Notes under the pieces: generated by a model | What the model was told of the DNA's origin: nothing | Seen by the model: only the letters and a program-made list of their open reading frames with translations | The model's database searches: none | Source: Aureobasidium sp. EXF-3400 | Taxonomy: Eukaryota; Ascomycota; Dothideomycetes; Dothideales; Saccotheciaceae | Direction of reading: 5' to 3' | Assembly (NCBI GenBank): GCA_024195585.1 | Contig: SWBL01000074.1 | Coordinates: forward strand, 62,001-126,000 | Length of the DNA stretch: 64,000 nt | Made by a program: the position numbers and the translations under genes | Shown: positions 14,073-30,465 of the stretch, in pieces | Position numbering within the stretch: position 1 is the first letter of the stretch | Layout: every line of letters starts with the position of its first letter

Positions 14073-15445
14073 TCACAAACGAGCTTGTTCTTGCCTTTTC
14101 TTGTCGGTGACGAGGTCTTTGAGCTCCCGTGTCTCACCAATGCGCCAACTAACAGCCTTTGCCCAATCCAAAGATCTCGTGTCAACGTCTTTCCAACGCC
14201 ATCGGGTTTCCGTCTGTATTCCTGCTGTCAGGAGTTGCAGAACCCATTTACCGAATGTAGGCATCATCTTGAACCCGTGGCCAGAATCTCCTGTCAACAC
14301 TACAAGAGACTTGTTGTATCCGGGTACGAAGTCGATGCAAAAGTCTGAGTCGATAGTATCGGCAAACCAGCATAGCCTTTGTTCTACCAAAGGCCTATCG
14401 GCCATCCATGGGAAGACTTCCTGAAGAAGTTTGCGCAGTTTACGCTCGTCAGCTGCTGGGATGAAATCTTGTGGTTGTGGCAGGCGGTCGCTTGGCGGAA
14501 GGGATAGGCCAGACTCCTGTGGGTTAGTGTAACCGGCACCGAGGGGACATAACTTGAACAGTCGAGTCACCGGGTCGGGCTCGAAGAAAAACCCTAGATC
14601 TCGTACGTTGGTGGTAGGTAAACCACGAAGAAGATCGACCTCAGATGCTGTCAACTGGATGTGCGCGACAGACCAGCATCGAGCCATGACGAAGCGACCC
14701 AAACTGGGTATCAGGGAGGCCGCGTGTGCACCGAGGGCACAGATCGTGGTGTCAGCATGATGAGACTGGCCGTCCGCGGTCTTCACACCGATGCATTTGC
14801 GGCCCGTCGGAGAGGCGTCATCATACAAAAGTGCCTCAGCTTTTCCTGCACGTTCGCCAAGAACAAATTTGACACCTCTAGCAGCAAGATGTAACCAGAT
14901 ACCGTGAAGAGCATTAGAGGAATGAGCGTACCCAGCCAGCCGGTTGTGATAACCTCGGAAGCCATTCAAGGGGCCTGAGAACTGCCACGCAAAGTCTCGA
15001 AACTCTTTCGCACCACTGAGCGGAGTGATCTTGGACTTGAACACAGGATTTGCTTGGATGGTCTCAAGAGCAGCTTGTAGATGGTGAATGGCTTTCGGGG
15101 GAGCTGCACCTGTGGTAGCAACGATATAGCCAGTCTCATGGAAGTAAGGACCAAAAAGCGGCGTTTTCCAAGCCTCGATTGCTTCCTTTATGGTCTTGGT
15201 CAGTGTTAACCGTCTCAGATCTGAGCGCGAAAACTGACCAGTGCAAGGTCAGTGTAGAAGGAATCCTCATATTCAGGTCTGACGATCTTATTCAGATCAA
15301 ACGCAGCTGAGTATGGTGAAGGAATTGTTTCCGCTCGATCAAACACAGTAATATTGGTGTAACCCGATCGTTCAAGGTGTAGTGCTGTCGACAAGCCCCA
15401 AGCACCTCCACCGAGAATGAGGACTGGGGACTGTTTGTTCGGCAT
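14073..15445 (-). CDS. FAD-dependent amino-acid oxidase (sarcosine oxidase / fructosyl-amino-acid oxidase / saccharopine oxidase family)
   Basis: Two exons with intron 15186-15238; 439 aa. The N-terminal dinucleotide-binding motif is LILGGGAWGLSTALHLERSG. The C-terminal GDSGHGFKMMPTFG motif is typical of the monomeric sarcosine oxidase group. The Cys in QRLCWFADT (about residue 341) matches the residue that holds FAD covalently in that family. Members oxidise secondary amines or N-substituted amino acids (sarcosine, pipecolate, saccharopine, Amadori compounds). It diverges from the Zn2Cys6 gene at 15815 and their promoter has a CGG-N8-CCG site, so it probably belongs to the cluster. A cyclic or N-modified imino acid is a fair guess for its substrate, but nothing in the sequence proves it. 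Confidence 0.85.
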
Positions 15446-15758
15446 GACTTGAGAGTCAGATGAGATGAACGCACAGCATTAGAAGCTGTCACACGGGGTA
15501 CATATACATTGATGCTGAGCACGCTATGAGAACATCTCGGAAGCTTTGCCGGCGGTATCGCCACACCAATCAGCATGCTGCTCGGCCTGTGAGAAAGCAT
15601 GTCAGCTCTTCGGGGTGTGGGATCGAACGACAGACAGCCCGCAGCATGGTTGCGATAGGAGATGCGTGTGGAGAATATTTTGACATCAGGTGATTTCGCT
15701 CATCAAAAGGAGTGCGGGGTAGCCGCCGAGTCCGGCTGGAGTGTAGGACAAAAAGGGT

Positions 15759-15772
15759 CGGATGCCTTGCCG
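15759..15772. promoter_or_regulatory. CGG-N8-CCG site, oxidase/regulator divergent promoter
   Basis: tCGG-ATGCCTTG-CCGa. It sits about 45 bases upstream of the regulator ATG (15815) and about 315 upstream of the oxidase ATG (15445). Inverted CGG/CCG pairs at fixed spacing are the usual target of Zn2Cys6 dimers. Confidence 0.6.
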
Positions 15773-15814
15773 AGAGTGTGTGCGGTCTCTCCTCGCCATC
15801 TCCATGGCGCAAAG

Positions 15815-18302
15815 ATGCAAACAGAGAAGACGAATACCCAAACACGGAAGCGAGCACCAAACGCGTCAGTCTGACATTTTTAGTTGGACCAATTCTGTTT
15901 TGACATGTGAATAGTTGCACACGATGCCGTCAACAAAAGATTCGATGTCGCGGAGGATTTCCTTGCGATCAGTGTAACAAGAAGCGTCTCGAATGCGTTG
16001 TTGACGATAGACTACGCAAGATCCTGGTGACCAAGAGGCAAGTCAACTTCTCTTCGTTCGACAATATTCTAGATCGCTCGCTAAATACCTCTAGTCGTCT
16101 ATCTGAATTAGAGGCGAAAGTCGCTCTCTACGAAGGAGGAACGAGCATAGATCAGCCATCTCGAATCGAGGCTGGCGCTTCTGAGCCTCGCGAAATTCCA
16201 GTCCCTACTGCCCAGCTTGGAAATATCGACTCACCTCCAGGACAAGTTTCTGCGCCCAACTATACCGATCACGACGTAACTGAGATCAACTTTGACGTAG
16301 ACACGCCAGAGCAATTGTCTGTCAACGACCAAACAGCACAGGATTTTTCGCTTTCTCAAGTGCCGGCTGCGACTGCGGAAGACATCGATGTATCTCCTGA
16401 GAGGCAATCATCTCCAGAGTCCGAGCTCATGAACCCACTCGCACTAGGCATTTCAGCCTATACACCCAATGCCAAAAGCATACCGAGTCAGTATTGAGTA
16501 GCCGAAATGCCTGGGAGGTGCTGCTGACTCTGTGCTGTAGTATATCTCGGAACCTCATCGAACTGGTCGTTTGGTCGACGTGTGCTTGCAATGTCACACG
16601 AGCGGATTCTAGGCTCGCCATTGTCACCCGATAATCTGCTTTTCCAAGGTGAAGCATACGATCTTGGATGGGATGGATCGAGGGGGGATGCCCCCAGCTT
16701 AAAAACAGACAATGCGACCCTTCCCTCGGCTGATCACGCGATGTATCTCATCAACGCCACCAAATTCCACGTCGGTCAGATGTTCCACCTCTTCGACGAA
16801 GAAAGTTTTATGCAATCTTTCTCGCGATTTCACAACGCCAATGCAGACAAATCCGGACTCATCCCGCTGTGGTATGCGCATTATCTTCTCATCCTCGCAT
16901 TCGGGAAAGCTTTCCTTGCTCGGACCGTCAAGGGAAGAAAGCCGCCAGGAGCAGACTTGTTTGTGCAGGCCATGGCGATTCTTCCCGATGTGACTTACCT
17001 GTGTTTGCATCCCATTGAGACGATTGAGATTTTGTGCTGTGCGACCCTCTATCTTCATTCGCTCGACTTCCGAAGTCCAGCGTATCAACTGGTCAGTATG
17101 CTTGGAGATTATACCTTACAGGCGCTAATACTGCCTCATCAGATCGGTCAGGCCCTCAGGATAGCTCTTGAGCACGGCATGCACACCAACATGCAGAGTC
17201 AACACGTCTCGGAAGCTCTAGCCCAAAGATGCCGTAAGATCTGGTGGACAATTTATGTGCTCGATCGAAACCTTTCTTCCCTCATGGGCGTGCCATCATC
17301 TATTCGTGATGAGGATATCAGCGCAAGCTTACCACTGTACCCCGAATCACCTTGCAGAGCTACGGCACTGGAAATACAGGTGAAACTGTCCAGAGTGATC
17401 GCCAGAATCTCGAATGGTAAGTATACGTGCAGCTTATCGAAATGCCTCTCTCGATGCTGACCATGGTTATAAGATCTGTACGGTCCTGGAGGCAATCTCG
17501 ACATACGCTATGTGTCGCACACGAGGGAAGCGCTTTTGGACATCGCACGCATAACCGATCAGTTGCATCGATGTTTTGAGATTACGCCTGAGAAGTCTGA
17601 CTTCGGCATATCAAGACTCTCCGCCTACCTGCACATTTTACATCACCAATGTGTCATTCTTGCGACTCGTCCCTTGCTCTACACTTTCTTAGAAACGCGT
17701 CTGCATTCTCGATATCTTGGGCAGCGCCGCTACAACGGCGTAAAGGCGTTGTTAATCATGTGTATCGAGTCTGCATTCCAGAACATACGAATACTGTCCC
17801 AACTACAGGATGAAGGTCTTCTAGGTAAGATTGAAATCACAAGTATTTGTGGTCCCGGGCTGATCGTGGGCTAGAATGTTTCCTTTCGTTTGACCTTGAC
17901 GCTGCATTCAGCTCAGCCCTTGTCCTACTCATAGCAACGACGATCGATCCCTCTCTCCTGGAGAACGACAATCGGCCGGCGGAGAAGGCTTACCAGATCC
18001 TGGAAGAAATGAAGATCCGAGGTAATCAAGTCGCTGGCTTCATGTTAGCTGAGTTGCGTCAACTGGAGACAATCCTCGAACAAGTACCACCACTCGATGA
18101 TCGCAGAGGCAGTAAGACAGACTCTTGCCAGTCCGTACAGAGGCACCATGTACCATCTTTGAGCTCTGACAGTCTCACGACTCCATTCATGGACTGCGCT
18201 ATTGGTGATGCTGATTGGCAATATACCATGACAACGGAACAGATGATACAGGTCGCAGACTCTCTAGACTTTGAGGGTTTCGATTGGGCAGGACTCCAGT
18301 AG
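15815..18302 (+). CDS. Zn2Cys6 transcription factor, probable cluster regulator
   Basis: Six exons with introns 15865-15914, 16487-16540, 17092-17142, 17417-17473 and 17825-17874; 741 aa spliced. The first exon ATG (15815) gives a basic lead-in, RKRAPN, running into the zinc cluster CTRCRQQKIRCRGGFPCDQC. The apparent start at 15907 is GTG and is rejected. A short Leu-rich coiled coil (SRLSELEAKVALYEGG) follows the zinc cluster, then a fungal-transcription-factor domain (YLGTSSNWSFGRRVL; CRKIWWTIYVLDRNLSSLMG). The 51-nt intron 17092-17142 is a multiple of three without a stop. Position inside the cluster and a site in its own promoter suggest it activates the block, by analogy with PrnA and Put3. 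This is inference. Confidence 0.88.
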
Positions 18303-18977
18303 TCGCAGGTTCTCTTGTACATTTGATATGTAGTGTATGTACAACTTATGGTGTTATCAATTCCTTTGCTTCTTCCCTTCTCAAAAGTGTATGCCCTGAA
18401 TTCAGCGAGGTCAACTTTGGCATCACAGGAGGACATTGGTAGGATACATCGCTTCTACGTTGAGAGACACCAATGCATTGGAATGGAATCATCAATCAGA
18501 CTGACCCTGTTCCTCGCGCCTTACAGCCGGCTTGACCAGAGTACATCGGCACGGCAACCCTTGTGGCGATTGCTCGCGCCGCCACATCGGACACATTGAG
18601 AGGTACTATGAGGGCTGATAAGAACGGGTATGTTTCCCTTCTGTTTTGCCGCTTGATCGTTGATCCGCTCAATGTGACTTAAACTGGTCATGATATCCTT
18701 CAGCCGATAGAGCTTGTTGACTGTTGGGTTGATCCCATGCCTCGAGCCGTCGAATTGATGTCCCAGTAGTCACTCCGAGCTTCGTGACTTGTTTCTCAAT
18801 CTTATCAAGGTATCAGCGGGGTAATGCGGCATATGATTCCTGCTGCTTGCATACAAGATGATCTTTACCGGATCGCTTTCCGATCAGCATCACCACATCT
18901 TGGTTCAATACTAAACAGATCTTGAGTTTGATGACTTCTATCAACAACCATATTCACACAAACCACAACTCCACCAA
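18303..18977. promoter_or_regulatory. Intergenic region, promoter of the proline-dehydrogenase-family gene
   Basis: 675 bases with no recognisable gene. It includes the 3' flank of the regulator and one CGG-N8-CCG site at 18869, about 96 bases before the ATG. Confidence 0.5.
18869..18882. promoter_or_regulatory. CGG-N8-CCG site upstream of the dehydrogenase gene
   Basis: cCGG-ATCGCTTT-CCGa, about 96 bases before the ATG at 18978. Confidence 0.6.
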
Positions 18978-20476
18978 ATGTCTCTTTCCGCAAGAAGCAG
19001 ATTCCTATCGCACAAAGCATTTCCATGTAACGTTTCCAGGAAACCCGTGTTGTCATCCTCGAACAGAGCGCTGCACCATGGGGTCAGCCCAAGCAATCAG
19101 AAAGAGGGACTGTATTCTATTACCGGAACAGACGGCACAGACTTGTCAAAGAACGGTCTATCTGCTCTACCGCTGCGGATGCTATTGAGATCACTTCTCA
19201 TTGCTACCATATCCTCACGAAGATACTTACTCGTTCCATCCCTGTCGATCCTGTCCTTCCTCTCAAAGCCTGGTAGAGGCCTCTTGCTGAACGTCGATAA
19301 GAACCCCTTCATCCACGCACTGGTGAAGCGAACGTTTTATGACCAGTTTTGCGCCGGAGAATCCGAAAGAGAAGCAAAAGCTACTTGTCGACACATCAAA
19401 GACCTTGGCTTCCGGGGTATCCTTCTCACCTTTGCAAAGGAGACTGTCTTTGACCACCGCACCTTGACCGAGCATCGCGTTGGAGAGTCGGCTCTGGAGT
19501 CGAAGGAGACTGGAGCCCCACTCGATCCAAAAGTGGCGCAGAATGCCGATATCGAGATTTGGCGACAAGGCACGCTCCAAACCATCGACTTACTGGGCGA
19601 AACCGATTATCTTGCTGTCAAGTAAGTGTGAGATGGCTGACTTGATTACAACAACTACTAATCTGTTCTCCCAGATTGACTGGCGCCGGCCCAGCTGTCA
19701 CAAAGGCTTTTGCTGACATGACTCCACTGCCCAAACAGATGCTGGACGCTCTGGATGAGATCGCCCTCAAGTGTCAGGGCAGAAATGTTCGCATACTCGT
19801 GGATGCAGAATCGCAACGCTTCCAATGGGGCATTATGGACACTACAATCGACCTTATGAGGAGGTTCAATCAAGGAGATCAAGCTCTCATATACAATACA
19901 TATCAGGCCTACCTCAAAAGTACATCGGCAACGCTCGAGAAACACTTTTCACTGGCCAGTGATGAAGGTTTCACTCTAGGGCTCAAGCTTGTCCGCGGTG
20001 CTTATATCAACTCGGACGAAAGATCGCTGATACACGACACCAAGCAAAACACGGACGATGCGTATGACATGATAGCCCGAGGTGTCTTGAAGCAGCAGTT
20101 GGGATCCTTCGGATCCGGCGGTGGCCGTCCGTTCCCCTCCGTCAACTTGTTCCTAGCAAGTCACAACAAAGCCAGCGTTGTGTCGGCCCATGAGCTACAT
20201 CGGAACCGCTCGCAGGCAAGCCTTCCAACCGTCCCTGTGGGATATGCACAGCTCCAGGGAATGTCCGACGATGTCAGTTTTAGTCTCTTGAGATGCAAAG
20301 ATGCTAGCGGCTCACCTCCCGAAGTCTTCAAATGCTCGACTTGGGGCACGATGAGTGATTGTCTAGCCTATCTACTCCGCAGGGCTGTGGAAAACCGCGA
20401 CGCAGTCGCTCGGACAGGAGATGAACTAGCCGCTTTGAGAGCCGAGCTTTGGAGGAGGGTCAAGTCCGGCGTCTGA
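18978..20476 (+). CDS. Proline dehydrogenase family, probably hydroxyproline dehydrogenase (mitochondrial)
   Basis: Two exons with intron 19622-19674; 481 aa. FAD enzyme of the PRODH TIM-barrel family. It should oxidise L-proline or trans-4-hydroxy-L-proline to the pyrroline carboxylate. The N-terminus (MSLSARSRFLSHKAFPCNV) is Arg/Ser-rich like a mitochondrial presequence. Family motifs: LKLVRGAYI, LASHNKAS, and the substrate-carboxylate Arg pair in YLLRRAVENRD (about R450/R451). Fifteen residues before that pair, where proline dehydrogenases have Tyr in KYxPYG (E. coli PutA Tyr540), this protein has Cys435 (KCSTWG). That Tyr enforces preference for proline over hydroxyproline, and animal hydroxyproline dehydrogenase has Ser there. 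Hydroxyproline is therefore the likelier substrate. Family certain, specificity inferred. Confidence 0.9.
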
Positions 20477-20642
20477 TCGTCAAGAGCAAATTATCTACAC
20501 AGTCAGAGCCAGAATGGGAATGGGATCAAATGCAATGATCGAATCGTGACTCTTGTAATTTCTATGGATAGTCAGAGTACGTGGAGATTGTCGACGACCC
20601 CAGATGTGAGCAAAACTACCCCTCCCGAGCTTGATAACGGGT

Positions 20643-20656
20643 CGGCAACGCTTCCG
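20643..20656. promoter_or_regulatory. CGG-N8-CCG site upstream of the P5C reductase gene
   Basis: tCGG-CAACGCTT-CCGa, about 113 bases before the ATG at 20770. Its half-sites and spacer nearly match the site at 26148 (CAGCGCTT spacer). Confidence 0.6.
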
Positions 20657-20769
20657 ATGTACATGTAATAAGCATCGACACTCATTGCCTCTTGTCCGGC
20701 TCCATTCCATTTCCATATCTGTCTTGCTCCCTAGTCTGTTGCAGACTGTGATAACGCCAAACTGTGACG

Positions 20770-21725
20770 ATGAGAGATGTTGCACTATGTTTGTTAGGCT
20801 GCGGTACAGTGTTCTCATCCCATGATGTTTCAATGCCTAATCAACAATAATCGCAGGCAATCTCGGCACGCCAATCCTCAGTAGTCTTATGGAAGCAGAC
20901 CCTGTTGACAATGGAGACATCAAGATCACTCGATACATCGCCTGTACACGTTCCGAGGCTTCTGAAGCACGACTTCGAAGGACACTCGATCACACATGCA
21001 ACAACTTGAAGATTACGAGAGGAAGCAACATCGAGGCCATTACAGAGTCGGATGTGATCATCCTAGCTGTAGATCCCTCGATGGTCGAGGCAGTCCTGAC
21101 TCAAAAAGGCATTCGCAAGGCTTTGCAGTCTAAACTCCTGATCAGCATTGTGGCCGGATGGACGCGAGAAAAGCTGGAGACAACTATATACGGTTCCAAG
21201 AGCACATCCGAAAACAGACAAGATCGTGCTTGGGTAGTTCGTACTCTGCCCAACATCGCAGCACAAGTCGCACAGTCACTTACCGCTATCGAAGTCTCGG
21301 ATCCTCCTCTTCCATCCGCGTATATGCAGATCATAGAAGGATTATTCGAGCGAGTCGGCAAGACTGTTCAGATCGAGCCAAGACTCATGGACGCAACAAC
21401 TGCTCTTGGGGGCTCCACTCCGGCATTCTTCGCTGTTATCTGCGATGCTCTGATTGATGCTGCAGTTGCAGTCGGGGTACCCAGGGCTATGGCTCATGTC
21501 ATGACTTTCCAGGCTATGCAAGGTACTGCTTCGTTGCTCCAGAGTGGCATCCATCCAGCGCTTCTGAAAGATCAAGGTACATCTCCAGAGGGTTGCACTA
21601 TCGGGGGTTTGATGGTTATGGAGGAAGCTGGTGTGCGGGGTCATATTGGGCGAGCTCTTCGTGAAGCAGTCACAATTGCTCGACGCATGGACAGTGATCC
21701 GCACGTCAACGATACAAGGCATTAG
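20770..21725 (+). CDS. Pyrroline-5-carboxylate reductase family (ProC)
   Basis: Two exons. A 34-nt first exon (MRDVALCLLGCG) was recovered because it completes the Rossmann motif GCGNLGTPIL across intron 20804-20856. Spliced length 300 aa, normal for ProC. The NADPH fold is followed by VRTLPNIAAQVAQS and the C-terminal signature ALGGSTPAFFAVICDALIDA. ProC reduces P5C to proline, and animal enzymes can also reduce 3-hydroxy-P5C to hydroxyproline. In a catabolic cluster it may recycle the pyrroline intermediate, reduce a pyrroline made by the neighbouring FAD oxidase, or serve another imino acid. Its promoter carries a CGG-N8-CCG site. It is convergent with the aminotransferase. Confidence 0.88.
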
Positions 21726-22504
21726 AGACTTTGGTCTGTAGATATCGATTCTTCTAATTAACTCAAGAATGACAGCTTCTTGTGTGTCTCTTGCAAACTT
21801 CAATGTTCAACAAAAAGCTCGACTGAGTCGTGTCTCATAGTCAATAACCCGTAGCTGTGTCGTTGGAATGACGAATCGACTCCTCAAACTTCCTGCCAGG
21901 GTTGTCACAGCCAACACTTGTAGGGCCCTCGCCGCGACGAACTTGCCTGGCGCCATGGGGTACATTAAAACACCACATAAAGATGTCCTGGCCTGTCGCT
22001 ATACCTCTTGTTTGTACGAAATATTTGTAACATTGACCAGGCCGTCAAATGATGATTGATGATGGGAACACCCTGTTTCTCTAAGCAGTGCTCAAATGTG
22101 GCTTCCCAAGCTACGCCAACCCCGCTATCAGCAGATCTGTTTGGTCGTCGTTGAACATGAGTCCAAGGCCGCCAATAGAAGGCTTTGCTAGCAGGTTGGC
22201 AGTACATACGCCCTTGAAAACGACCGTAGAGAAGACTCAGCTCAAACATTGGCAGGCGCCATCCGGTGAGTAAAGCACGCGGTTGGAAAGCAATAGGAAA
22301 ATGCTCTAGTAGGAATGGAGACCAACATTACAAGGAGAATACATCGCAAGTGAAACTAGAGCCCAAGAAACCGACTTTCGGCCAGTCGTCATACTCCCTG
22401 GGGTCAGGTGTTATGAAAGTGGTGTTCCGTTCCTGCCTGACATCTATCGCAAAACCAGACTATCTCCTGACACTTATGCTTCCCAATCCTCGCCTTGCCG
22501 CCCA
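21726..22504. other. Region between the convergent P5C reductase and aminotransferase genes
   Basis: About 780 bases. Short frames exist on both strands (for example plus 21868-22059 with a basic, presequence-like start) but none matches a family, and each is interrupted. It may hold a gene remnant; I call nothing. Confidence 0.4.
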
Positions 22505-24156
22505 TCATGCATCGTGTACTAAACATGCCTTGATAGAGTGGGCAACATACTCTACATTGCTCATGTTCAGGCCTGCAATCGATATTCGGGAGTTGCTCGC
22601 CATGTAGATGTGAAACTCTTCTGCCTATTTGTCAATATGTTTTCTCATAGCTACTAGATCAACTTACCTCGTAATCTAACCACAACTTCTGGTGTCAAGC
22701 CGAGGAATCCAAACATACCGGTCTGCTCCTTGAGGTGCTTCCAAGAGCCGTGAGCTCCTGTCATACGATCAGTCATGCTTAGCGCAAGGGAAATAGGCGC
22801 GATGTACCGCAGTTGACCAATTCATCAAAGAGCTGTGTTCGCATCTTCCGGATGCGACCGCTCATCGTATTGAGGTCGTCATACCAAGCTCTTCTGAGAT
22901 CTTCGGATCCAAGGATTGCACTTGCTATCTTTGCGCCGAATGCAGGAGGATTTGAGACCTTATGCGAGGATTTTCGTCAGCACGTAATGACAGCAAGGAT
23001 AGTTTTACGTCTGAGCGAATTGCTTGTGGGTACGAGAAGATGTATCGACTAACCTCGGACCTCTGGATCATCTCAAGTGTCGACTGCGTCTTTACCGCAA
23101 CCGCTGGACTATCTGAGACTATCACAACGCAGCCCACCCTCTCACCTATGATCGTGTAAGCGTCTTGAATTGGCTCTCAAAGCCACTTGCAAACTCACCA
23201 TACAGACCCATGTTTTTGGCGAAGGACACGCACACTGCCACTTCCAGCTCTAGTTCGTCAACGAAGGTTCGGATTGCAAAAGCATCGCTATCAATACTTC
23301 CTGAGTTGAACCCCAAGTATGCCGCATCGAACAGTGGGAACAAGTGCCGCTCCTTCATAATCTTTCCTAGATTTCGCCACTGCTCCTTAGTAGGATCACA
23401 ACCTGTGGGATTGTGGGCGCAAGCATGAAGGATTACGATTGATCCTGGCTCGGCCTCCTGCAAAGTAGACAAATAAGAGTCGATATCCAAGGCTTTCTTC
23501 CTGTAGTCGTAGTATGGAAAAGTTATACATTGGAACCCGAGAGTCTCAAAGACTTGCTGATGATTGGACCAAGTCGGGTCAGGGATGTAAACCTTAGTAG
23601 ACGGACCGCGGCATGTTTTGAGAAGTAGACCTGTGAGGTGTAGACCACCCGTACCAGAAAGACTTTGACATATTGCGAGCTGTTATCACGTCAGTCGATG
23701 AACTGTGTTATGTCTCCAGAAGATAGGGTGCGTTACGCGTTCCCAGAATTTGGCGTAGCAAGGACCAAGAACGACCTGAGCGGCTCTTTGGCGAAATGCC
23801 TTCAGACCGAGTATAGGGAGATACTCATGATTGAGATCGCCATCGAACAGCATCTTGCGTGCTCTTTGAACGACTGGAAGAACCCATGGTTTTCCTGCGT
23901 CGTCACGATAGGTTCCCTGGCCTAGATTGACCTTCAATGTGCTTGGGTCCTCATCGTAGTGTGCAGTCAGGGCGAAGATTGCATCTGGAGGGTTGAACTT
24001 GGCTTCTGCAAACCAAGATGCACAAACTGAGTAGTCGACCTGATCTCTGCTCGGTGACATCCTTGCGGTCAGAATTGGCGAGTCGTACTCTGCTTGAGTA
24101 GTGCTCCGGCTGCTAAGACTACTTGAAGATAGGCGGTGTGAACCAAATTTGGGCAC
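22505..24156 (-). CDS. Aspartate aminotransferase family (class I PLP), probably mitochondrial
   Basis: Six exons with introns 23680-23736, 23146-23198, 22959-23053, 22758-22807 and 22621-22667; 449 aa spliced. Typical aspartate aminotransferase motifs: NPPDAIFAL, HEYLPILGLKAFR, HACAHNPTGCDPT, and the PLP lysine in VSFAKNMGLYGERVG (about K295), ending with ASNSRISIAGLN. The Ser/Arg-rich start (MPKFGSHRLSSSSLSSRS) suggests mitochondrial import; an alternative start MSPSRDQ lies at 24060. In animal hydroxyproline breakdown an aspartate aminotransferase converts 4-hydroxyglutamate to 4-hydroxy-2-oxoglutarate, the step expected between the P5C dehydrogenase and the aldolase encoded here. It diverges from that aldolase, sharing a promoter with three CGG-N8-CCG sites. 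Confidence 0.9.
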
Positions 24157-24291
24157 AGAGAAGCAGCATCAAGTAGGATCTAGGTAAACTTCGCAGTCCA
24201 GGCCAGGCGTCGTTCGGATCTGTCATGACCAACATAGCTGATCCGATAGACATTCTTCGCACAGAGAACGATCATCTCCGCACACCTCGCC

Positions 24292-24305
24292 GGTCATGTC
24301 ACCGA
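24292..24305. promoter_or_regulatory. CGG-N8-CCG site 1, aminotransferase/aldolase promoter
   Basis: cCGG-TCATGTCA-CCGa, in the 433-base region between the divergent start codons at 24156 and 24590. Confidence 0.6.
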
Positions 24306-24396
24306 CCAGACAGCAAATCTTGATCATGCACTGATAAGTCGGGCCAGAGCCAGAAAATCATCACTAGCGCGCCAGATTGAACAATCTTTTCCCGGT

Positions 24397-24410
24397 CGGA
24401 GCAGCTACCG
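24397..24410. promoter_or_regulatory. CGG-N8-CCG site 2, aminotransferase/aldolase promoter
   Basis: tCGG-AGCAGCTA-CCGa, in the same divergent promoter. Confidence 0.6.
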
Positions 24411-24441
24411 AAAGCACGATTGACCACGCACTGCGGGTTAC

Positions 24442-24455
24442 CGGCAGCGTGCCCG
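24442..24455. promoter_or_regulatory. CGG-N8-CCG site 3, aminotransferase/aldolase promoter
   Basis: cCGG-CAGCGTGC-CCGg, extending to the wider inverted repeat ACCGG-N8-CCGGT. It is the only one of the nine sites without A after CCG. Confidence 0.6.
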
Positions 24456-24589
24456 GTCTCGTCAAACCCATTCCTCTTGGACTATAGCTTGCCAAGATAT
24501 ATCAGAGCTCTTACGTCCATGGCAGCTGTTTTTGCAGATCAAAACCCGTCTTATGCGCGCATCTAATATCGGTAACAAGACATCAAACA

Positions 24590-25576
24590 ATGGGAGCTCA
24601 AGGACCTCAGATCACTCCCAAGCCTCACGTGCCAGCTTCAGGCGTCTGGTGTCCGGCAATCACTTTCTTCGACCATGAAAGTGACACTTTGGACCTCAAG
24701 GCCCAATCTCAATACTTCTCCTATCTTTCAACCACAGGCCTTGCTGGGCTTGTGATTCTGGGCACCAATTCCGAAGCTTTCCTGCTCACTCGCGAAGAGC
24801 GCTTCCAGTTGATCTCTACAGCTCGCGCGGCGGTCGGTCCCGACTTTCCTCTGATGGCTGGAGTGGGAGCCCACTCAACTAAGCAATCGCTGGAATTCGC
24901 GGAGGATGCCGCTGATGCTGGTGCCGACTATGTTCTGGTACTCCCTCCGGCCTACTTTGGCAAAGCCACGAGCATGGACGTTGTCAAGCGATTCTTCGCT
25001 TCATTCGCCGCCAAATCACCTCTTCCCGTGATCATCTACAACTTCCCGGGAGTGACGAATGGCGTTGATCTGGACTCAGAGACTATGACGGCCATCGTCG
25101 AAGAGTCTGCCTCTATCAGCGGAACTTCTAACGTTGTGGGCGTGAAGTTGACTTGTGCCTCTGTTGGCAAGATCACTCGATTATCAGCTACCTTCGACCC
25201 ATCAGAATTTGCCATCTTCGGGGGGCAATCCGACTTTCTTATTGGTGGCCTTGCCGCTGGATCGGCTGGTTGTATTGCTGCGTTTGCTAACGTCTTTCCG
25301 AAGTCGACTGCCAAGATCTACGAACTGTACAGAGCTGGTCAATTTGAGAAGGCAACGAAATTGCAGCAGAAAGCCGCATTAGCAGAAAGTCCTTGTAAGA
25401 GCGGTATCGCTTCTACCAAGTATGCTGTTGCGTGCTATTCGGCTGCTGCTGCAGGCATAGAAGAAGCAGAGGAAAAGTTGGCCCCCAGACATCCCTATGG
25501 AGCGCTCGGCGAGGGTGTCAAGAAGAACGTAGTATCTGTCATGGACGCCATGGCGGAAATTGAGAAAAGCCTGTAA
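24590..25576 (+). CDS. DapA-family aldolase, probably 4-hydroxy-2-oxoglutarate aldolase (HOGA-like)
   Basis: Single exon, 328 aa. A class I Schiff-base aldolase of the dihydrodipicolinate synthase fold: GTNSEAFLLTREER (about 58-71), catalytic Tyr in VIIYNFPGVTNG (Y150), Schiff-base Lys in NVVGVKLTC (K186), and an FGGQSDFLIGGLAAGSAG loop. Fungi make lysine through alpha-aminoadipate and do not need DapA, so a catabolic aldolase is expected. Given the linked dehydrogenase, P5CDH and aminotransferase, the best fit is cleavage of 4-hydroxy-2-oxoglutarate to pyruvate and glyoxylate, as by animal HOGA1. The main alternative is a sugar-acid aldolase such as GaaC of galacturonate breakdown, but none of that pathway's other genes is here. 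Confidence 0.82.
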   Translation: MGAQGPQITPKPHVPASGVWCPAITFFDHESDTLDLKAQSQYFSYLSTTGLAGLVILGTNSEAFLLTREERFQLISTARAAVGPDFPLMAGVGAHSTKQSLEFAEDAADAGADYVLVLPPAYFGKATSMDVVKRFFASFAAKSPLPVIIYNFPGVTNGVDLDSETMTAIVEESASISGTSNVVGVKLTCASVGKITRLSATFDPSEFAIFGGQSDFLIGGLAAGSAGCIAAFANVFPKSTAKIYELYRAGQFEKATKLQQKAALAESPCKSGIASTKYAVACYSAAAAGIEEAEEKLAPRHPYGALGEGVKKNVVSVMDAMAEIEKSL

Positions 25577-25750
25577 TCTAGATTGTCGTCCATAGGTGCA
25601 TACTCGAGTGTTATCAATAAGACTTGTAGATCTGGAGTTCGCTGCACGGATTTGATGATCGATGTGATGTTGATTGATGAAGTCGCAAGGGTGTGCGATG
25701 TCGTGATACACTGATTGGTGGACCAATGTTTTTCACATCGTGAAGCCTTG

Positions 25751-25798
25751 GTCAAAAGTCTTGGCTTAGGCTGCCAGTCAAAAGTCTTGACTTTGGCT
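25751..25798 (+). repeat. Two-copy direct repeat, 26-bp period
   Basis: GTCAAAAGTCTTGGCTTAGGCT (25751-25772) recurs as a 20/22 match at 25777-25798, separated by GCCA. No known element was recognised. Confidence 0.6.
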
Positions 25799-26147
25799 CT
25801 GCAGGCCTCTATTGTACAAGCTACGCACTTGCTTCCATGCTTTTACATCGTGAACACCGCATTATTATTGGAACCATACTTGCGTGTTGGTCGATACTCT
25901 AGTCTTGCACCAGTCCGGCTCACTTCAGCTCACGGTCGGATCTAATGGCCACTCCAACGCTCAGATCGGCTGTACGGGCCTCATACTGTATCCTCTTTCG
26001 AGCGATTACTGCGACCGTCACATGGCGTTCGATACCGGAAAATCCGTCCAAATCGAGTATCGCGTTGGAGACTATATGCAGCTGCTTCTTTCTCAAGATA
26101 TACCGGCGATCAGCGATTCCTGGGCTGATAGAGCTTGAACCACGCTA

Positions 26148-26161
26148 CGGCAGCGCTTCCG
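26148..26161. promoter_or_regulatory. CGG-N8-CCG site 1, P5C dehydrogenase promoter
   Basis: aCGG-CAGCGCTT-CCGa, about 190 bases before the ATG; its spacer differs by one base from the site upstream of P5C reductase. Confidence 0.6.
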
Positions 26162-26243
26162 ATGTTTCGTGGCAGCACATCCCGCAAGCCGGAGTCTCCT
26201 CGATAGCCGCTTGATGAGATACGATACTGGTCTGCCGACATTA

Positions 26244-26257
26244 CGGTCGCCAGTCCG
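26244..26257. promoter_or_regulatory. CGG-N8-CCG site 2, P5C dehydrogenase promoter
   Basis: aCGG-TCGCCAGT-CCGa, about 95 bases before the ATG at 26352. Confidence 0.6.
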
Positions 26258-26351
26258 AGACCAGAATGGGATTATATTCAAGATGCTGTATTGCCTTGTA
26301 AGTACTTGATCTTCTAAGTATCATTTCAACAACAGAATCATTGCAACTGCA

Positions 26352-28121
26352 ATGCCATCCCTATTCACACAGAGATTTTCAGCGCGTCATCTGGTCGGCG
26401 GGAAGCGAGGAAGTCTCGCCTCTATCAGATCAGTTTCGACGGCGTTCAAGATTCCCAAGCCATACAATGAGCCAAATGTTCGTACCATCATCCTAAAACC
26501 GCTCGATAGGGGTACTAACTGTTCGCAGCTTCACTACGACAAAGCGTCACCTGAGAGGGAGAAGTTACTAGCAGCGCTTGCGAAGTTGCGCAAAGAACTG
26601 CCTGTTTCTGTTCCAGCTGTCAGGAATGGCATCGAGATCGCAAGTAAGGACGAAGTCAAGACAGTCATGCCGTCCGAGACGGCCTCGGTCTTTGCGCAAT
26701 ACTCTCCTTCTTCCAAGGAAGATGTCGCACAAGCGATCAAAGCAGCTCTTGAGGCCAAAAAGACATGGCAGGAAACTTCTTTCCACGACCGAGCTGCTAT
26801 CTTCCTTCGTGCAGCTGAGTTGGTCTCCACGACTTACCGATTCGAACTCGTAGCAGCTACTATGCTTGGTCAGGGCAAGAATGCCTGGCAGGCTGAGATC
26901 GATGCTGCAGCTGAGTTGGCCGACTTCTACAGATTCAATGTCGGATTTGCGGAAGAAATCTACTCGCGCCAACCTACGCTGAATGCATCTGGTCAGGCTG
27001 GTCATACAGATTGGCGCCCCTTGGAGGGCTTTGTGTATGCTGTCTCGCCATTCAACTTTACTGCGATTGGAGGAAACCTCATCTCAGGTCCTGCGTTGAT
27101 GGGTAATGTGGTATTGTGGAAGCCATCGCCCGGCAACGTTTATGCCAGTTATCTTGTTCACAAGATTCTCCTCGAGGCAGGCCTACCTCCGAATGTGATC
27201 CAGCTCGTGAACGGAGACGCCGAGCTTGTTACAGATGTCGTCTACGATCATCCTGAATTTGCTGCCCTCAACTTCACTGGCTCCTCGGATGTGTTCCGCG
27301 AGTTGTATGCTAGAGCCGCCGACGGAGTCCGCACCAAGAAATACCGCGATTACCCTCGTATGGTTGCCGAGACGTCTGGCAAAAATTTCCACCTGATTCA
27401 CAACACTGCGGATATCCCGAATGCTGTGAAGCATACCATCAGAGCCACTTTCGAATATGCCGGCCAGAAGTGCTCTGCATGCTCGCGCATTTACATTCCC
27501 GAAAGTCGTGCTGCAGAGTTCTGGTCGGAGATGAAAGCAAATTTGAGCCTCGTCAAGGTCGGCGCTCCTGAGGACTTTAGCAGTTTCACCGGCCCAGTCA
27601 TCAATGATGCCGCTTTTAAGAAGATTACAGGTATCATGGACGCTGCGAACAAGGACGACCGTCTCGAGACTATTCACGGCGGCACTTATGACGGTAGCAA
27701 AGGTCTTTACATCGAGCCTACAATCTACGCCTCCAAAACACTTGATCATGAGCTCTTCAACAAGGAAATCTTTGGACCGGTGCTCACAGCTTACGTGTAC
27801 CCGGATGCCGAGTATGACTCTCTGCTCACTAGTATCGATCAACAGGGTGGTGGTTTTGCTCTGACCGGTGCTATCTTTGCCTCTGACCAAGCGGTAATTC
27901 GCAAGACAGTGGACCGCCTGCGCTATGCTGCTGGAAACTTCTATACCAACTGCAAAACTACTGGAGCAGTCATCGGACAACAATCTTTTGGTGGTGCGCG
28001 TGGTAGTGGAACCAATGACAAGGCTGGAAGCGCAGGAATGCTTGTTCGTTTCACAGCTCCTCGAACGCTGAAGGAAGAGTATCACAAGTTGGGAGACGTT
28101 TTGTACCCGAGCAACTACTAG
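26352..28121 (+). CDS. Delta-1-pyrroline-5-carboxylate dehydrogenase (ALDH4 family), mitochondrial
   Basis: Oxidises glutamate semialdehyde (from P5C) or 4-hydroxyglutamate semialdehyde (from 3-hydroxy-P5C) with NAD. The frame is open for 589 codons, but 26478-26528 is almost certainly a 51-nt intron (GTTCGT donor, TACTAAC branch, CAG). It is a multiple of three without a stop; its removal joins KPYNEPN to LHYDKASPER as in other fungal P5CDHs, giving 572 aa. The N-terminus MPSLFTQRFSARHL is a likely mitochondrial presequence. ALDH motifs: SPFNFTAIGGNL, NFTGSSDVFRELY, ETSGKNFHLI, and the catalytic Cys in FEYAGQKCSACSR (about residue 357 spliced). Two CGG-N8-CCG sites lie upstream. Confidence 0.93.
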   Translation: MPSLFTQRFSARHLVGGKRGSLASIRSVSTAFKIPKPYNEPNVRTIILKPLDRGTNCSQLHYDKASPEREKLLAALAKLRKELPVSVPAVRNGIEIASKDEVKTVMPSETASVFAQYSPSSKEDVAQAIKAALEAKKTWQETSFHDRAAIFLRAAELVSTTYRFELVAATMLGQGKNAWQAEIDAAAELADFYRFNVGFAEEIYSRQPTLNASGQAGHTDWRPLEGFVYAVSPFNFTAIGGNLISGPALMGNVVLWKPSPGNVYASYLVHKILLEAGLPPNVIQLVNGDAELVTDVVYDHPEFAALNFTGSSDVFRELYARAADGVRTKKYRDYPRMVAETSGKNFHLIHNTADIPNAVKHTIRATFEYAGQKCSACSRIYIPESRAAEFWSEMKANLSLVKVGAPEDFSSFTGPVINDAAFKKITGIMDAANKDDRLETIHGGTYDGSKGLYIEPTIYASKTLDHELFNKEIFGPVLTAYVYPDAEYDSLLTSIDQQGGGFALTGAIFASDQAVIRKTVDRLRYAAGNFYTNCKTTGAVIGQQSFGGARGSGTNDKAGSAGMLVRFTAPRTLKEEYHKLGDVLYPSNY

Positions 28122-28844
28122 TTCGTCTTGTTTCCGATTCCAAATCGACTACCAGTTCATCTTCTTTCTGATTTCACAATATCTTTAGTGAGAATACAAG
28201 ATTCGTTCAGCCCAAAGCATTTGCAACCAGTGAAGTCATCGCTGGGACGACTGCCGAAAGCCCGTGTTGTGTACATGACCTGTCTCGTTGTTCGTGCTGA
28301 AATTGGATGGTACGTCGAAGGGTTGTGCTTCTAGCCCCCCTCATCTCGCTCGGATAACATCTGATATTCAAAGTACTGGAGGATCAAACTCGCCGGCTCG
28401 GAATTGTCTTCCGAATTACACTAGATGTACCTGCTGATGATACATTTGACTTCAAAGCTCTATGAATCTTTGCAGCGTATTTATCGACACCTGTAGCCGA
28501 GTCATTCCGGCTGCCTAGCCGAAGGCTGGACTCCTCGCAGGACAGCGCAGCCACTTGCAAAGATACCGCATATCTTGTCCGAAAGCGAGAGATAGGACAA
28601 CAGCCACACCTGACTCCACGCTATCAGTATCAGTCTGGCTGCAATAATCGTCAGAGCGTCTGTCATCGTCACTAGCAAATGCGGAGAAGCAGACCATGGC
28701 GCATAGTGTGTAAGCCAGACTTTGGTAGTTCCCAGACGGCTTGATGATCGGTATATATTCCCGGCTGGAATCCTAGGCAAGTCATCTGGTTTTACATTCT
28801 ACTTTCTCGTCCACTTCCAAATATCCAGTACGCATTCTACTAAA
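28122..28844. promoter_or_regulatory. Intergenic region, promoter of the amino-acid permease gene
   Basis: 723 bases without a recognisable gene; it carries the CGG-N8-CCG site at 28508. Confidence 0.5.
28508..28521. promoter_or_regulatory. CGG-N8-CCG site upstream of the amino-acid permease gene
   Basis: cCGG-CTGCCTAG-CCGa, about 325 bases before the ATG at 28845. Confidence 0.55.
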
Positions 28845-30465
28845 ATGGCTTATCATACATCGAAGGTCGATGATAAGACGGACACAACTCTTGAACAGAC
28901 AGTCTCCAATCGCGTGGGTGAAATCAGAGACTTTGATTCACGCCACGATGCTGTCTTTGGTGATCTAGGCGATGATGGACCGAACTACCGCGCGGTATGA
29001 GGACAAACTCTGACCTTATTCAACCATCGATAGACTAATGATGGACAGGTCGGGTGGCTGGGCAGTGTGGCTCTCATGATGAAAACGCAGATTGGCCTGG
29101 GAGTACTTTCAATTCCAGCGGTCTTCAACAGCCTCGGAATGATACCCGGTATCATTTGTCTTCTCGCCATTGCTATCATAACCACTTGGTCTGACTACAT
29201 GGTCGGTGCCTTCAAATTGAGGCATCCGGAAATCTACGGCATCGATGATGTTGGTCAAATGCTGTTTGGTCGCATCGGCAAGGAGGTAATGGGTGTGGCC
29301 TATGTTCTCTGTGAGTACAATTTTCTCCCATACGTTCCACCCGGCAGAGCTGATATAGAGACAAGATTGGATCTTCGTCGCTGGTTCGGGGATGCTCAGC
29401 ATCTCCATCGCCCTTAACGCGCTTTCGCTCCATGGCGCCTGTACCGCCATCTTCGTCGCCATCGCTGCTGTCATTGGCTTCGTCTTCTGTAGCATACAGA
29501 CTTTGGGGAGAATCACCTGGCTTGCGTGGGTAGGAGTCATCTGTATCATCTCTGCCAGTGAGTTGATTTATCGGCCTACATAGAGGCTCAATTTAGGCTA
29601 ATACATCATAGTTCTGACCCTGACGGTCGCGGTCGGTGTGGGTGGTCGTCCTGCAGCAGCACCACAGACGGGCCCTTGGGAGTCTGACTTCAAACTCATT
29701 GGCAATCCGACCTTTGTGGAGGCTATATCCGCCGTCTCGGCACTCGTCTTCTCCTTCGCGGGCACACCAGGCTTCTTCCCGATCGCTTCCGAGATGAAGG
29801 ATCCACGCATGTTTACTCGTGCACTCATCATCTGCCAGTCTATCGTCACGTCTATATATATCTCGATCGGAGTTGTCGTCTACTACTTCGCTGGATCATA
29901 TGTTGCTTCTCCTGCCCTTGGATCAGCGGGCCCTCTCTTGAAGAGAATCTGCTATGGGCTTGCGCTCCCTGGTCTCTGCGTAAGCACCATTTTGTTGTCA
30001 CACGTAAGTAGCAAATGTTTCCCGCCGCGAATTATCACTGACTGTTGATAGTTGCCAGCCAAGTATGTCTTTCTCCGTATCCTTCGCGGCACCAAACACG
30101 TCTCACAGAACACGTTCATACACTACGTGACGTGGTTTAGCTGTACAGCCGGGACCATCATCATCTCCTATGTCATTGCAAGCGCCATTCCAGTGTTCGG
30201 TGGCTTAGTGTCGCTCATTGGCGCTCTGTTGGGAACTTTTCTTTCTTTCCAGCCTTATGGCTGTATGTGGCTTTATGACCACTGGCATGGTCAGCGAAAT
30301 ACTAAGTGGGCTCTAATGGTCGGCTGGTGTGCTTTTGTCATTATCATTGGAACATTCATGATGATCGCGGGTACCTATGGCTCGATCGTGGAGATTGCCG
30401 ATAGTTATAGGGCAGACGGAGGATCATCAGCATGGTCATGTGCAGATAATTCCGGCAGTGTATAG
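28845..30465 (+). CDS. Amino-acid permease, AAAP (Aa_trans) family
   Basis: Five exons with introns 28995-29048, 29311-29365, 29558-29611 and 30004-30051; 469 aa spliced. A hydrophilic N-terminus (about 50 residues) precedes roughly 11 membrane helices. The opening KTQIGLGVLSIPAVFNSLG and FSFAGTPGFFPIASEMKDP are typical of fungal neutral amino-acid permeases such as N. crassa Mtr. The prn cluster of A. nidulans uses a permease of another superfamily (PrnB), so this is not a simple prn orthologue. Position at the cluster end and an upstream CGG-N8-CCG site suggest uptake of hydroxyproline or proline, which is inference. Confidence 0.88.

What the first reader, a model, noticed from the sequence alone, without database searches (positions are those of the whole stretch)
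14073..30465. A complete animal-type hydroxyproline breakdown pathway packed into one fungal gene cluster
Sequence: eight adjacent genes encode a PRODH-family enzyme, P5C dehydrogenase, aspartate-type aminotransferase, DapA/HOGA-type aldolase, amino-acid permease, Zn2Cys6 regulator, P5C reductase and an FAD amino-acid oxidase. Known biochemistry: animal mitochondria degrade trans-4-hydroxy-L-proline by hydroxyproline dehydrogenase, ALDH4A1, aspartate aminotransferase and HOGA1 to pyruvate and glyoxylate. The known fungal prn/PUT systems handle proline and need neither a transaminase nor an aldolase. Inference: this cluster uses hydroxyproline (from collagen, extensins or hydroxyproline-containing peptides). 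I know of no described fungal cluster with this set.
Basis: partly seen in the sequence, partly recalled or inferred. Interest (0 to 1): 0.9.

Follow-up and report, generated by a model that had tools for sequence, protein, structure and literature searches.

The report
Fungal gene cluster for eating hydroxyproline
A fungus carries, in two copies, a block of eight neighbouring genes that is predicted to break down hydroxyproline, an amino acid abundant in collagen and plant cell-wall proteins, by the route animals use, and a shared DNA signal in the block's promoters suggests that one switch likely controls them all.

Summary
Window 14073-30465 holds eight genes: FAD oxidase, Zn2Cys6 regulator, PRODH-like enzyme, P5C reductase, aspartate-type aminotransferase, DapA-type aldolase, P5C dehydrogenase, permease. 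The same eight lie on contig C151 in the same order, and similarity stops at the block's edges. The PRODH-like enzyme is not the proline enzyme: the genome's proline locus has Tyr at the position matching PutA Tyr540, the cluster enzyme Cys, and the 120 best relatives listed have Cys (117) or Ser (2; 1 unread). PutA Y540S was crystallised with hydroxyproline. The proline contigs show no aminotransferase or aldolase match. All 12 promoter stretches carry CGG-N8-CCG, against 0.75 expected. PRODH and aminotransferase share a contig length in 12 of 33 species; seven gene models fuse PRODH to the cluster-type P5C reductase. Best reading: a trans-4-hydroxy-L-proline catabolic regulon yielding pyruvate and glyoxylate. 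No activity has been tested. Aldolase residues fit but do not discriminate; aldolase and PRODH shared a contig in 0 of 18 species; the FAD oxidase and P5C reductase roles remain open.

The parts
14073..15445 (-). FAD-dependent oxidase (PF01266), amadoriase/sarcosine-oxidase type, C-terminal ARL (PTS1-like); intron 15186-15238
   Evidence: best solved relatives are fructosyl amine oxidases, 214 bits; paralogues at 63-66% in the proline loci C67/C510
15907..18302 (+). Zn2Cys6 regulator (zinc cluster read by eye; Fungal_trans domain); first exon upstream of 15907 not resolved
   Evidence: C151 copy; fused to PRODH in 4 Aureobasidium melanogenum gene models
18978..20476 (+). PRODH-family dehydrogenase, predicted hydroxyproline dehydrogenase (Cys at the PutA Tyr540 position); intron 19622-19674; presequence-like N-terminus
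20770..21725 (+). P5C reductase, cluster-specific clade; intron 20804-20856
   Evidence: 29-44% to the other copies in the genome; fused to PRODH in 7 of 120 relatives
22505..24060 (-). aspartate-type aminotransferase, cluster-specific clade, several introns, no evident mitochondrial presequence
   Evidence: best other full copies in the genome about 40-45%; N-terminus compared with C151
24590..25576 (+). DapA-family aldolase, predicted 4-hydroxy-2-oxoglutarate aldolase
   Evidence: below the dapA equivalog cut-off, 114.7 against 206.15
26352..28121 (+). P5C dehydrogenase (ALDH4 type), presequence-like N-terminus; 51-nt in-frame intron 26478-26528
28845..30465 (+). amino-acid permease of the Aa_trans family (PF01490), several introns, not fully modelled
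   Evidence: PF01490 matches within C74:91049-92387; C151 copy
15538..15772 (.). three CGG-N8-CCG sites (15538, 15715, 15759), stretch between FAD oxidase and regulator
18869..18882 (.). CGG-N8-CCG site upstream of PRODH
20643..20656 (.). CGG-N8-CCG site upstream of P5C reductase
24291..24455 (.). three CGG-N8-CCG sites (24291, 24397, 24442), divergent aminotransferase/aldolase promoter
26148..26257 (.). two CGG-N8-CCG sites (26148, 26244) upstream of P5C dehydrogenase
28508..28521 (.). CGG-N8-CCG site upstream of the permease

Best explanation
The eight adjacent genes, present in two copies in this genome and sharing one promoter motif, likely form a regulon that breaks down trans-4-hydroxy-L-proline to pyruvate and glyoxylate. 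Predicted steps: the permease brings hydroxyproline in; the PRODH-like enzyme (presequence-like N-terminus, mitochondrion) oxidises it to 3-hydroxy-pyrroline-5-carboxylate; P5C dehydrogenase (likewise) gives 4-hydroxyglutamate; the aminotransferase gives 4-hydroxy-2-oxoglutarate; the DapA-type aldolase splits this into pyruvate and glyoxylate. The Zn2Cys6 regulator would bind CGG-N8-CCG in every promoter of the block. The P5C reductase would reduce hydroxy-P5C back to hydroxyproline or serve a side route. The FAD oxidase (C-terminal ARL, probably peroxisomal) would feed in related forms, such as N-substituted or D-hydroxyproline. Shown: gene content, order, boundaries, duplication, motif, the residue at the specificity position, and linkage of some of the genes in other fungi. 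Inferred: every substrate, every compartment and the identity of the motif-binding protein.
For: (1) Eight genes and an eight-gene copy on C151 with nothing shared beyond the edges in the stretch compared; five genes compared codon by codon have dN 0.08-0.21, saturated or nearly saturated dS and no stop codons. (2) Subtraction: the prn-type loci C67/C510 have FAD oxidase, P5C dehydrogenase and a Tyr-type PRODH (25-32% identical to the cluster PRODH), and no listed aminotransferase, aldolase or P5C reductase match lies on those contigs. (3) Specificity position: Tyr in the proline enzyme; Cys in both cluster copies; Cys 117, Ser 2, unread 1 of the 120 best relatives listed, of 1588 found. The best-scoring profile alignment places this Cys on the Tyr of Geobacter PutA; PDB 3e2q is PutA Y540S with trans-4-hydroxy-L-proline. 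Other PutA active-site residues compared (Lys329, Asp370, Tyr437, Tyr552, Arg555, Arg556; numbers recalled) are kept. (4) A retro-aldol split to pyruvate needs a 4-hydroxyl, which sets 4-hydroxyproline apart from proline and 3-hydroxyproline (chemistry). (5) The aldolase keeps Lys, Tyr and Asn of HOGA1, with Thr for Ser77 and Ser198 (PMC3188589, passages). (6) CGG-N8-CCG in 12 of 12 promoter stretches; 500 first-order random sets have mean 0.75, largest 4; 2 of 17 other gaps in the window have it. (7) PRODH and aminotransferase lie on contigs of the same length in 12 of 33 species (9 of the 12 under 1 Mb), aldolase and aminotransferase in 5 of 14 (1 under 1 Mb); PRODH-P5C reductase fusions in 7 of 120. 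(8) Aspergillus fumigatus grows, slowly, on hydroxyproline as nitrogen source (PMC2526178, passages).
Against: No enzyme or growth data. Human HYPDH has Ser at the key position (recalled); this clade has mostly Cys, and an unlinked PRODH pair (C169/C103) also has Cys. Pairwise HMMER and MAFFT alignments to E. coli PutA put a gap in this loop. Aldolase residues do not discriminate: the unlinked paralogues C273/C255 have the same set and C21/C80 a set with Ser-Asn, closer to HOGA1. Aldolase and PRODH share a contig length in 0 of 18 species; in Aspergillus mulundensis, A. undulatus and A. terricola PRODH and aminotransferase do, and the aldolase hit does not. S77T lowers kcat and S198T raises KM in human HOGA1. 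The motif was the best of 63 tried. The roles of FAD oxidase and P5C reductase are unexplained.
Confidence: 0.78

Rival explanations
1. A second, proline-directed cluster: a paralogous prn locus that oxidises proline, the extra genes serving glutamate and redox balance.
For: PRODH, P5C dehydrogenase and FAD oxidase families are shared with the prn-type loci; P5C dehydrogenase is 70-73% identical to the prn copies over its last two thirds.
Against: PRODH only 25-32% identical to the prn PRODH, with Cys for Tyr. Aminotransferase and aldolase have no evident use in proline breakdown.
Confidence: 0.1
2. A catabolic cluster for another ring amino acid, such as 4-hydroxypipecolate or a hydroxylated or methylated proline from a secondary metabolite; the aldolase acts on the matching 2-oxo acid.
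For: P5C reductases can act on piperideine-6-carboxylate (PMC12899673, passages); the FAD oxidase belongs to a family with several amine substrates.
Against: P5C dehydrogenase scores above the equivalog cut-off of its family. The retro-aldol step needs a hydroxyl at C4 of the 2-oxo acid, as in 4-hydroxy-2-oxoglutarate.
Confidence: 0.07
3. The aldolase is a sugar-acid enzyme (2-keto-3-deoxy-L-rhamnonate or -galactonate aldolase type) that is a bystander; the rest is an amino-acid cluster.
For: Some automatic names say 2-keto-3-deoxy-L-rhamnonate aldolase; active-site residues are shared with unlinked paralogues; aldolase and PRODH co-contig in 0 of 18 species.
Against: The aldolase shares a divergent promoter with the aminotransferase, carries the motif in both copies, is kept in both blocks, and is on a contig of the same length as the aminotransferase in 5 of 14 species, four of these contigs over 1 Mb.
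Confidence: 0.07
4. A biosynthetic cluster run in reverse: pyruvate and glyoxylate condensed and aminated toward 4-hydroxyglutamate or hydroxyproline by way of the P5C reductase.
For: The P5C reductase is a biosynthetic enzyme type, and aldolases and aminotransferases are reversible (established knowledge).
Against: P5C dehydrogenase works in the oxidative direction (established knowledge), and none of the eight genes is a glutamate kinase or glutamyl phosphate reductase; a permease and a pathway regulator fit uptake.
Confidence: 0.03

Closest known systems
Mammalian trans-4-hydroxy-L-proline degradation (HYPDH/PRODH2, ALDH4A1, aspartate aminotransferase, HOGA1)
   Same: Same four enzyme types in the same chemical order; small residue in place of Tyr in the dehydrogenase; Schiff-base Lys, Tyr and Asn of HOGA1 kept in the aldolase
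   Different: Clustered with its own regulator and permease; adds P5C reductase and FAD oxidase; Cys rather than Ser (Ser recalled); Thr for Ser77 and Ser198; aminotransferase and aldolase lack evident presequences
Fungal prn/PUT proline utilisation (here: loci C67/C510)
   Same: PRODH family, P5C dehydrogenase and an FAD oxidase paralogue
   Different: the prn-type loci have a Tyr-type PRODH and no aminotransferase, aldolase or P5C reductase match on their contigs; the cluster permease is Aa_trans, whereas PrnB belongs to the yeast amino-acid transporter family (recalled)
Bacterial hydroxyproline (Lhp/Hyp) clusters: epimerase, D-amino-acid oxidase, DapA-type deaminase, 2-oxoglutarate semialdehyde dehydrogenase (make-up recalled)
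   Same: Substrate class; a DapA-family and an FAD-oxidase gene in the cluster
   Different: No epimerase in the block (PF05544 matches only on C83 and C13); the dehydrogenase is of the P5C type; an aminotransferase is present

Membership tests
Mammalian-type 4-hydroxyproline pathway | PRODH-family dehydrogenase with a small residue at the Tyr540 position | tested here: met
   Cys in both copies; Cys or Ser in 119 of 120 relatives listed, 1 unread
Mammalian-type 4-hydroxyproline pathway | ALDH4-type P5C dehydrogenase | tested here: met
   TIGR01236 686.6 bits against cut-off 613.6; the eight best solved relatives are all P5C dehydrogenases, 447-535 bits
Mammalian-type 4-hydroxyproline pathway | Aspartate-type aminotransferase | tested here: met
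   Solved aspartate aminotransferases up to 384 bits, PLP-Lys region aligned
Mammalian-type 4-hydroxyproline pathway | HOGA1 residues Lys196, Tyr168, Ser77, Asn78, Ser198 | tested here: inconclusive
   Lys, Tyr, Asn kept, Thr at both Ser positions; the same or closer sets in unlinked paralogues; in HOGA1, S198T keeps kcat but raises KM 7-fold and S77T lowers kcat
Mammalian-type 4-hydroxyproline pathway | All four enzymes in mitochondria | tested here: inconclusive
   Presequence-like N-termini on PRODH and P5C dehydrogenase in both copies, none evident on aminotransferase and aldolase (read by eye; no predictor run)
Mammalian-type 4-hydroxyproline pathway | Activity on trans-4-hydroxy-L-proline and 4-hydroxy-2-oxoglutarate | not testable with these tools
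   needs enzyme assays
Fungal prn/PUT proline cluster | Tyr-type proline dehydrogenase | tested here: not met
   Cys; the Tyr-type enzyme sits at C67/C510
Fungal prn/PUT proline cluster | P5C dehydrogenase adjacent to PRODH | tested here: inconclusive
   present in the cluster but separated from PRODH by three genes
Fungal prn/PUT proline cluster | PrnB-type permease | tested here: not met
   permease matches PF01490 Aa_trans; PrnB family recalled
Bacterial Lhp/Hyp cluster | Hydroxyproline 2-epimerase (PF05544) in the cluster | tested here: not met
   2 matches in the genome, C83 and C13, neither in the block
Bacterial Lhp/Hyp cluster | 2-oxoglutarate semialdehyde dehydrogenase | tested here: not met
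   dehydrogenase scores 686.6 for P5C dehydrogenase and 170.9 against cut-off 770 for the 2-oxoglutarate semialdehyde model listed
4-hydroxy-tetrahydrodipicolinate synthase (DapA) | TIGR00674 equivalog score | tested here: not met
   114.7 bits against cut-off 206.15

The most novel reading that the evidence does not exclude
A hydroxyproline-utilisation regulon of filamentous fungi, the counterpart of the prn proline cluster. A dedicated PRODH clade lost its Tyr filter and a dedicated Zn2Cys6 regulator reads CGG-N8-CCG. The animal pathway is packed into one locus and split between mitochondrion and cytosol. A peroxisomal FAD oxidase and a cluster-specific P5C reductase act as a built-in feeder and recovery module for N-substituted or D-hydroxyproline. 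Parts of it are widespread in Pezizomycotina.
Probability: 0.4. Interest if true: 0.75.

Novelty: new variant of a known kind. Interest (0 to 1): 0.62.

Why it matters
Hydroxyproline is abundant in collagen and in plant cell-wall extensins, and fungi live on both, yet none of ten full-text searches of open papers listed, by title or abstract opening, a described fungal gene set for it (the longer lists were capped at 20 or 25 rows). If right, this names the genes, the regulator and its binding site. It gives a one-residue rule (Tyr against Cys or Ser) for telling candidate hydroxyproline from proline dehydrogenases in fungal genomes, where such genes are often named 'proline oxidase' or 'proline dehydrogenase'. 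It also predicts glyoxylate release when fungi digest collagen or plant cell-wall protein.

Tried and rejected
Considered and set aside. (a) The ATP-grasp genes 8930-10858 and 11873-13804 as cluster members: no match in the 40 kb of C151 compared. (b) Cys at the Tyr540 position as unique to the cluster: an unlinked PRODH pair (C169/C103) also has Cys and another (C8/C150) has Leu. (c) Aldolase residues as proof of substrate: Lys, Tyr and Thr are kept in 120 of the 120 relatives listed and Asn in 119 with 1 unread, but unlinked paralogues share them. (d) Alignment of E. coli PutA at Tyr540: pairwise HMMER and MAFFT runs put a gap in the loop, so I rely on the profile alignment to Geobacter PutA, the fungal Tyr-type enzyme and the constant spacing to the RR motif. 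(e) AlphaFold model of the A. melanogenum relative P0121, mean pLDDT 83.1: it matches PutA folds and puts the Cys on the strand before the helix with the two Arg, but no coordinates are given, so no distances were measured. (f) dS is saturated or nearly so, so dN/dS ratios are not quoted. (g) Synteny in other fungal genomes could not be read directly; contig-length matching stands in for it. Lengths are those of the longest contig of a 90% cluster, so a mismatch does not show that genes are unlinked, and a match on a multi-megabase contig is weak evidence of closeness. Rows without a species name were dropped: 64 of 120 aldolase and 9 of 120 PRODH rows; no aminotransferase row was dropped. (h) Papers on the Tyr-to-Ser rule: the one I knew is not held and a search listed none that I could use; the rule is recalled from Ostrander et al. 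2009, with the PDB title of 3e2q as the only tool result. (i) The 17 control gaps are simply stretches between long ORFs, not verified promoters; the C151 promoter bounds were set by eye from the matches.


Full report
What is there. The window is G000:C74:62001-126000 of a 53.4-Mb genome in 717 contigs. Reading 14073-30465 gives eight genes with short fungal introns. From left to right they are: an FAD oxidase (-), a Zn2Cys6 regulator (+), a PRODH-family enzyme (+), a P5C reductase (+), an aspartate-type aminotransferase (-), a DapA-family aldolase (+), a P5C dehydrogenase (+) and an Aa_trans permease (+). Family scans agree with these names (the regulator's zinc cluster was read by eye), and solved-structure searches agree for the five other enzymes; PRODH itself gave only weak matches to PutA by single sequence and clear ones by profile and fold. 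The P5C dehydrogenase has a 51-nt in-frame intron (26478-26528); at that place the C151 copy changes frame between two matching pieces.

The block is real and bounded. Contig C151 carries the same eight genes in the same order and relative orientation. Blastn of the whole 64-kb window against 40 kb of C151 (E 1e-10) gives eight matches, from 14075 to 30455, at 65-78% identity, and no other match. The two ATP-grasp genes to the left are therefore not shared. In five genes compared codon by codon there are no stops; dN is 0.08-0.21 and dS is saturated or close to it, so both copies have been kept under constraint. The best A. melanogenum matches to the C151 copy are 96% (PRODH piece), 94% (aldolase) and 85% (aminotransferase piece); the window copy is 97% identical to an aminotransferase of Aureobasidium sp. 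EXF-3400, and 95% and 93% to unnamed PRODH and aldolase rows. Other gene pairs of the genome are about 70-87% identical in nucleotides. I infer a hybrid of two Aureobasidium lineages; a mixed culture is not excluded.

Why hydroxyproline. First, by subtraction. The genome has a prn-type proline locus, also in two copies (C67, C510). It holds a P5C dehydrogenase next to a PRODH with Tyr at the PutA Tyr540 position, and an FAD oxidase. No listed aldolase, aminotransferase or P5C reductase match lies on those contigs. Second, the key residue. The cluster PRODH has Cys at that position in both copies. Of the 120 best relatives listed (of 1588 found), 117 have Cys, 2 have Ser and 1 could not be read. 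The best-scoring profile alignment puts this Cys on the Tyr of the Geobacter PutA motif. PDB 3e2q, the E. coli PutA Y540S mutant, was crystallised with trans-4-hydroxy-L-proline (title). That human hydroxyproline dehydrogenase has Ser here is recalled (Ostrander 2009), not read. An unlinked PRODH pair (C169/C103) also has Cys, so the residue alone does not mark the cluster. Third, chemistry. Only a 4-hydroxylated ring gives, after ring opening and transamination, a 4-hydroxy-2-oxo acid that a pyruvate aldolase can split.

The aldolase. It is of the DapA family but not DapA itself (114.7 bits against a cut-off of 206.15). Human HOGA1 scores 99.7 bits and 3qfe, a 'putative dihydrodipicolinate synthase family protein' (from Coccidioides, recalled), 461. 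The residues shown to matter in HOGA1 (PMC3188589, passages) are Lys196, Tyr168, Ser77, Asn78 and Ser198; here they are Lys, Tyr, Thr, Asn and Thr. Of 120 relatives listed (of 1731 found), 120 keep Lys, Tyr and Thr and 119 keep Asn, with 1 unread. This fits but does not decide: unlinked paralogues C273/C255 have the same set, C21/C80 have Ser-Asn, and some automatic names say rhamnonate aldolase.

One switch. I scanned the six intergenic promoter stretches of each copy for 63 arrangements of CGG half-sites. The inverted repeat CGG-N8-CCG is in 12 of 12, 21 sites in all. In 500 first-order random sets the mean is 0.75 promoters and the largest 4. In 17 other gaps of the window, 2 have a site. 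In the window, 11 of 21 sites lie in the 3.27 kb of cluster promoters. The sites persist although blastn finds no match between the copies in most of these stretches. That the cluster's own Zn2Cys6 protein binds them is inferred.

Other fungi. Close relatives of PRODH, aldolase and aminotransferase occur in many Pezizomycotina (each a list of the best 120). Genomes could not be read, so I matched contig lengths within species. PRODH and aminotransferase are on a contig of the same length in 12 of 33 species, 9 of these contigs under 1 Mb, among them 28,111 bases in A. melanogenum and 75,309 in Aspergillus similis; in A. nanangensis the gene tags differ by six. Aldolase and aminotransferase match in 5 of 14 species, only one contig being under 1 Mb (297,316, Penicillium brasilianum). 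Aldolase and PRODH match in 0 of 18, and in A. mulundensis, A. undulatus and A. terricola the aldolase hit is on a contig of another length than the linked PRODH and aminotransferase. No coincidence occurred between different species. Seven of 120 PRODH relatives are gene models fused to a P5C reductase, which is 57-67% identical to the window's cluster type and 36-44% to the two housekeeping copies compared. Four A. melanogenum models fuse the regulator to PRODH. So a regulator-PRODH-reductase core looks old, and the aldolase may join it only in some lineages.

Extra genes. The FAD oxidase is nearest to fructosyl amine oxidases, ends in ARL in both copies and in the C67 prn paralogue, and its paralogue in the proline locus argues for a reaction common to proline and hydroxyproline. 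E. coli P5C reductase oxidises both 4-hydroxy-L-proline isomers, though 150- to 300-fold less efficiently than proline (PMC12899673, passages), so a link to hydroxy-P5C is plausible. Neither role is settled.

Compartments. PRODH and P5C dehydrogenase have Arg-rich N-termini poor in acidic residues in both copies; aminotransferase and aldolase do not (read by eye; no predictor run). If this is right, the pathway is split between mitochondrion and cytosol, unlike the animal one.

Literature. Aspergillus fumigatus grows slowly on hydroxyproline as nitrogen source (PMC2526178, passages); the paper's clustered genes under this condition are in supplements that I could not read. Candida albicans Put2 is not induced by hydroxyproline compounds (PMC10621835, passages). 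Ten searches listed no paper on a fungal hydroxyproline gene cluster, judged from titles and abstract openings of lists capped at 20 or 25 rows. The library lacks most subscription journals, so an older description may exist.

Verdict. The finding stands: confirmed observation, well-supported but biochemically untested interpretation, known chemistry in a new fungal arrangement.

Noticed in passing
window 8930-10858 (-) and 11873-13804 (+): Two ATP-grasp proteins of the same domain make-up (ATPgrasp_N plus ATP-grasp_4) just left of the cluster; no match in the C151 stretch compared.
   Followed up: partly
G000 contigs C67/C510 (L031, L032): The proline (prn-type) locus also holds an FAD oxidase 63-66% identical to the cluster one, the C67 copy ending in ARL too.
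   Followed up: partly
G000 contigs C8/C150 and C169/C103 (L033-L036): Two further PRODH-family pairs outside the cluster, with Leu and Cys respectively at the Tyr540 position; the Leu type aligns Ser at the PutA Asp370 position. Function unknown.
   Followed up: no
whole genome: The gene pairs compared are about 70-87% identical in nucleotides, and the two cluster copies are closest to different Aureobasidium rows, suggesting a hybrid genome.
   Followed up: partly
G000 contigs C83:117496-118488 and C13:133270-134262: Two proline racemase / hydroxyproline epimerase family (PF05544) genes outside the cluster.
   Followed up: no
protein P0338 (Pseudogymnoascus): A relative of the aminotransferase is in one gene model with a PF03446/PF14833 hydroxyacid dehydrogenase, a family that includes glyoxylate reductases (family content recalled).
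   Followed up: no
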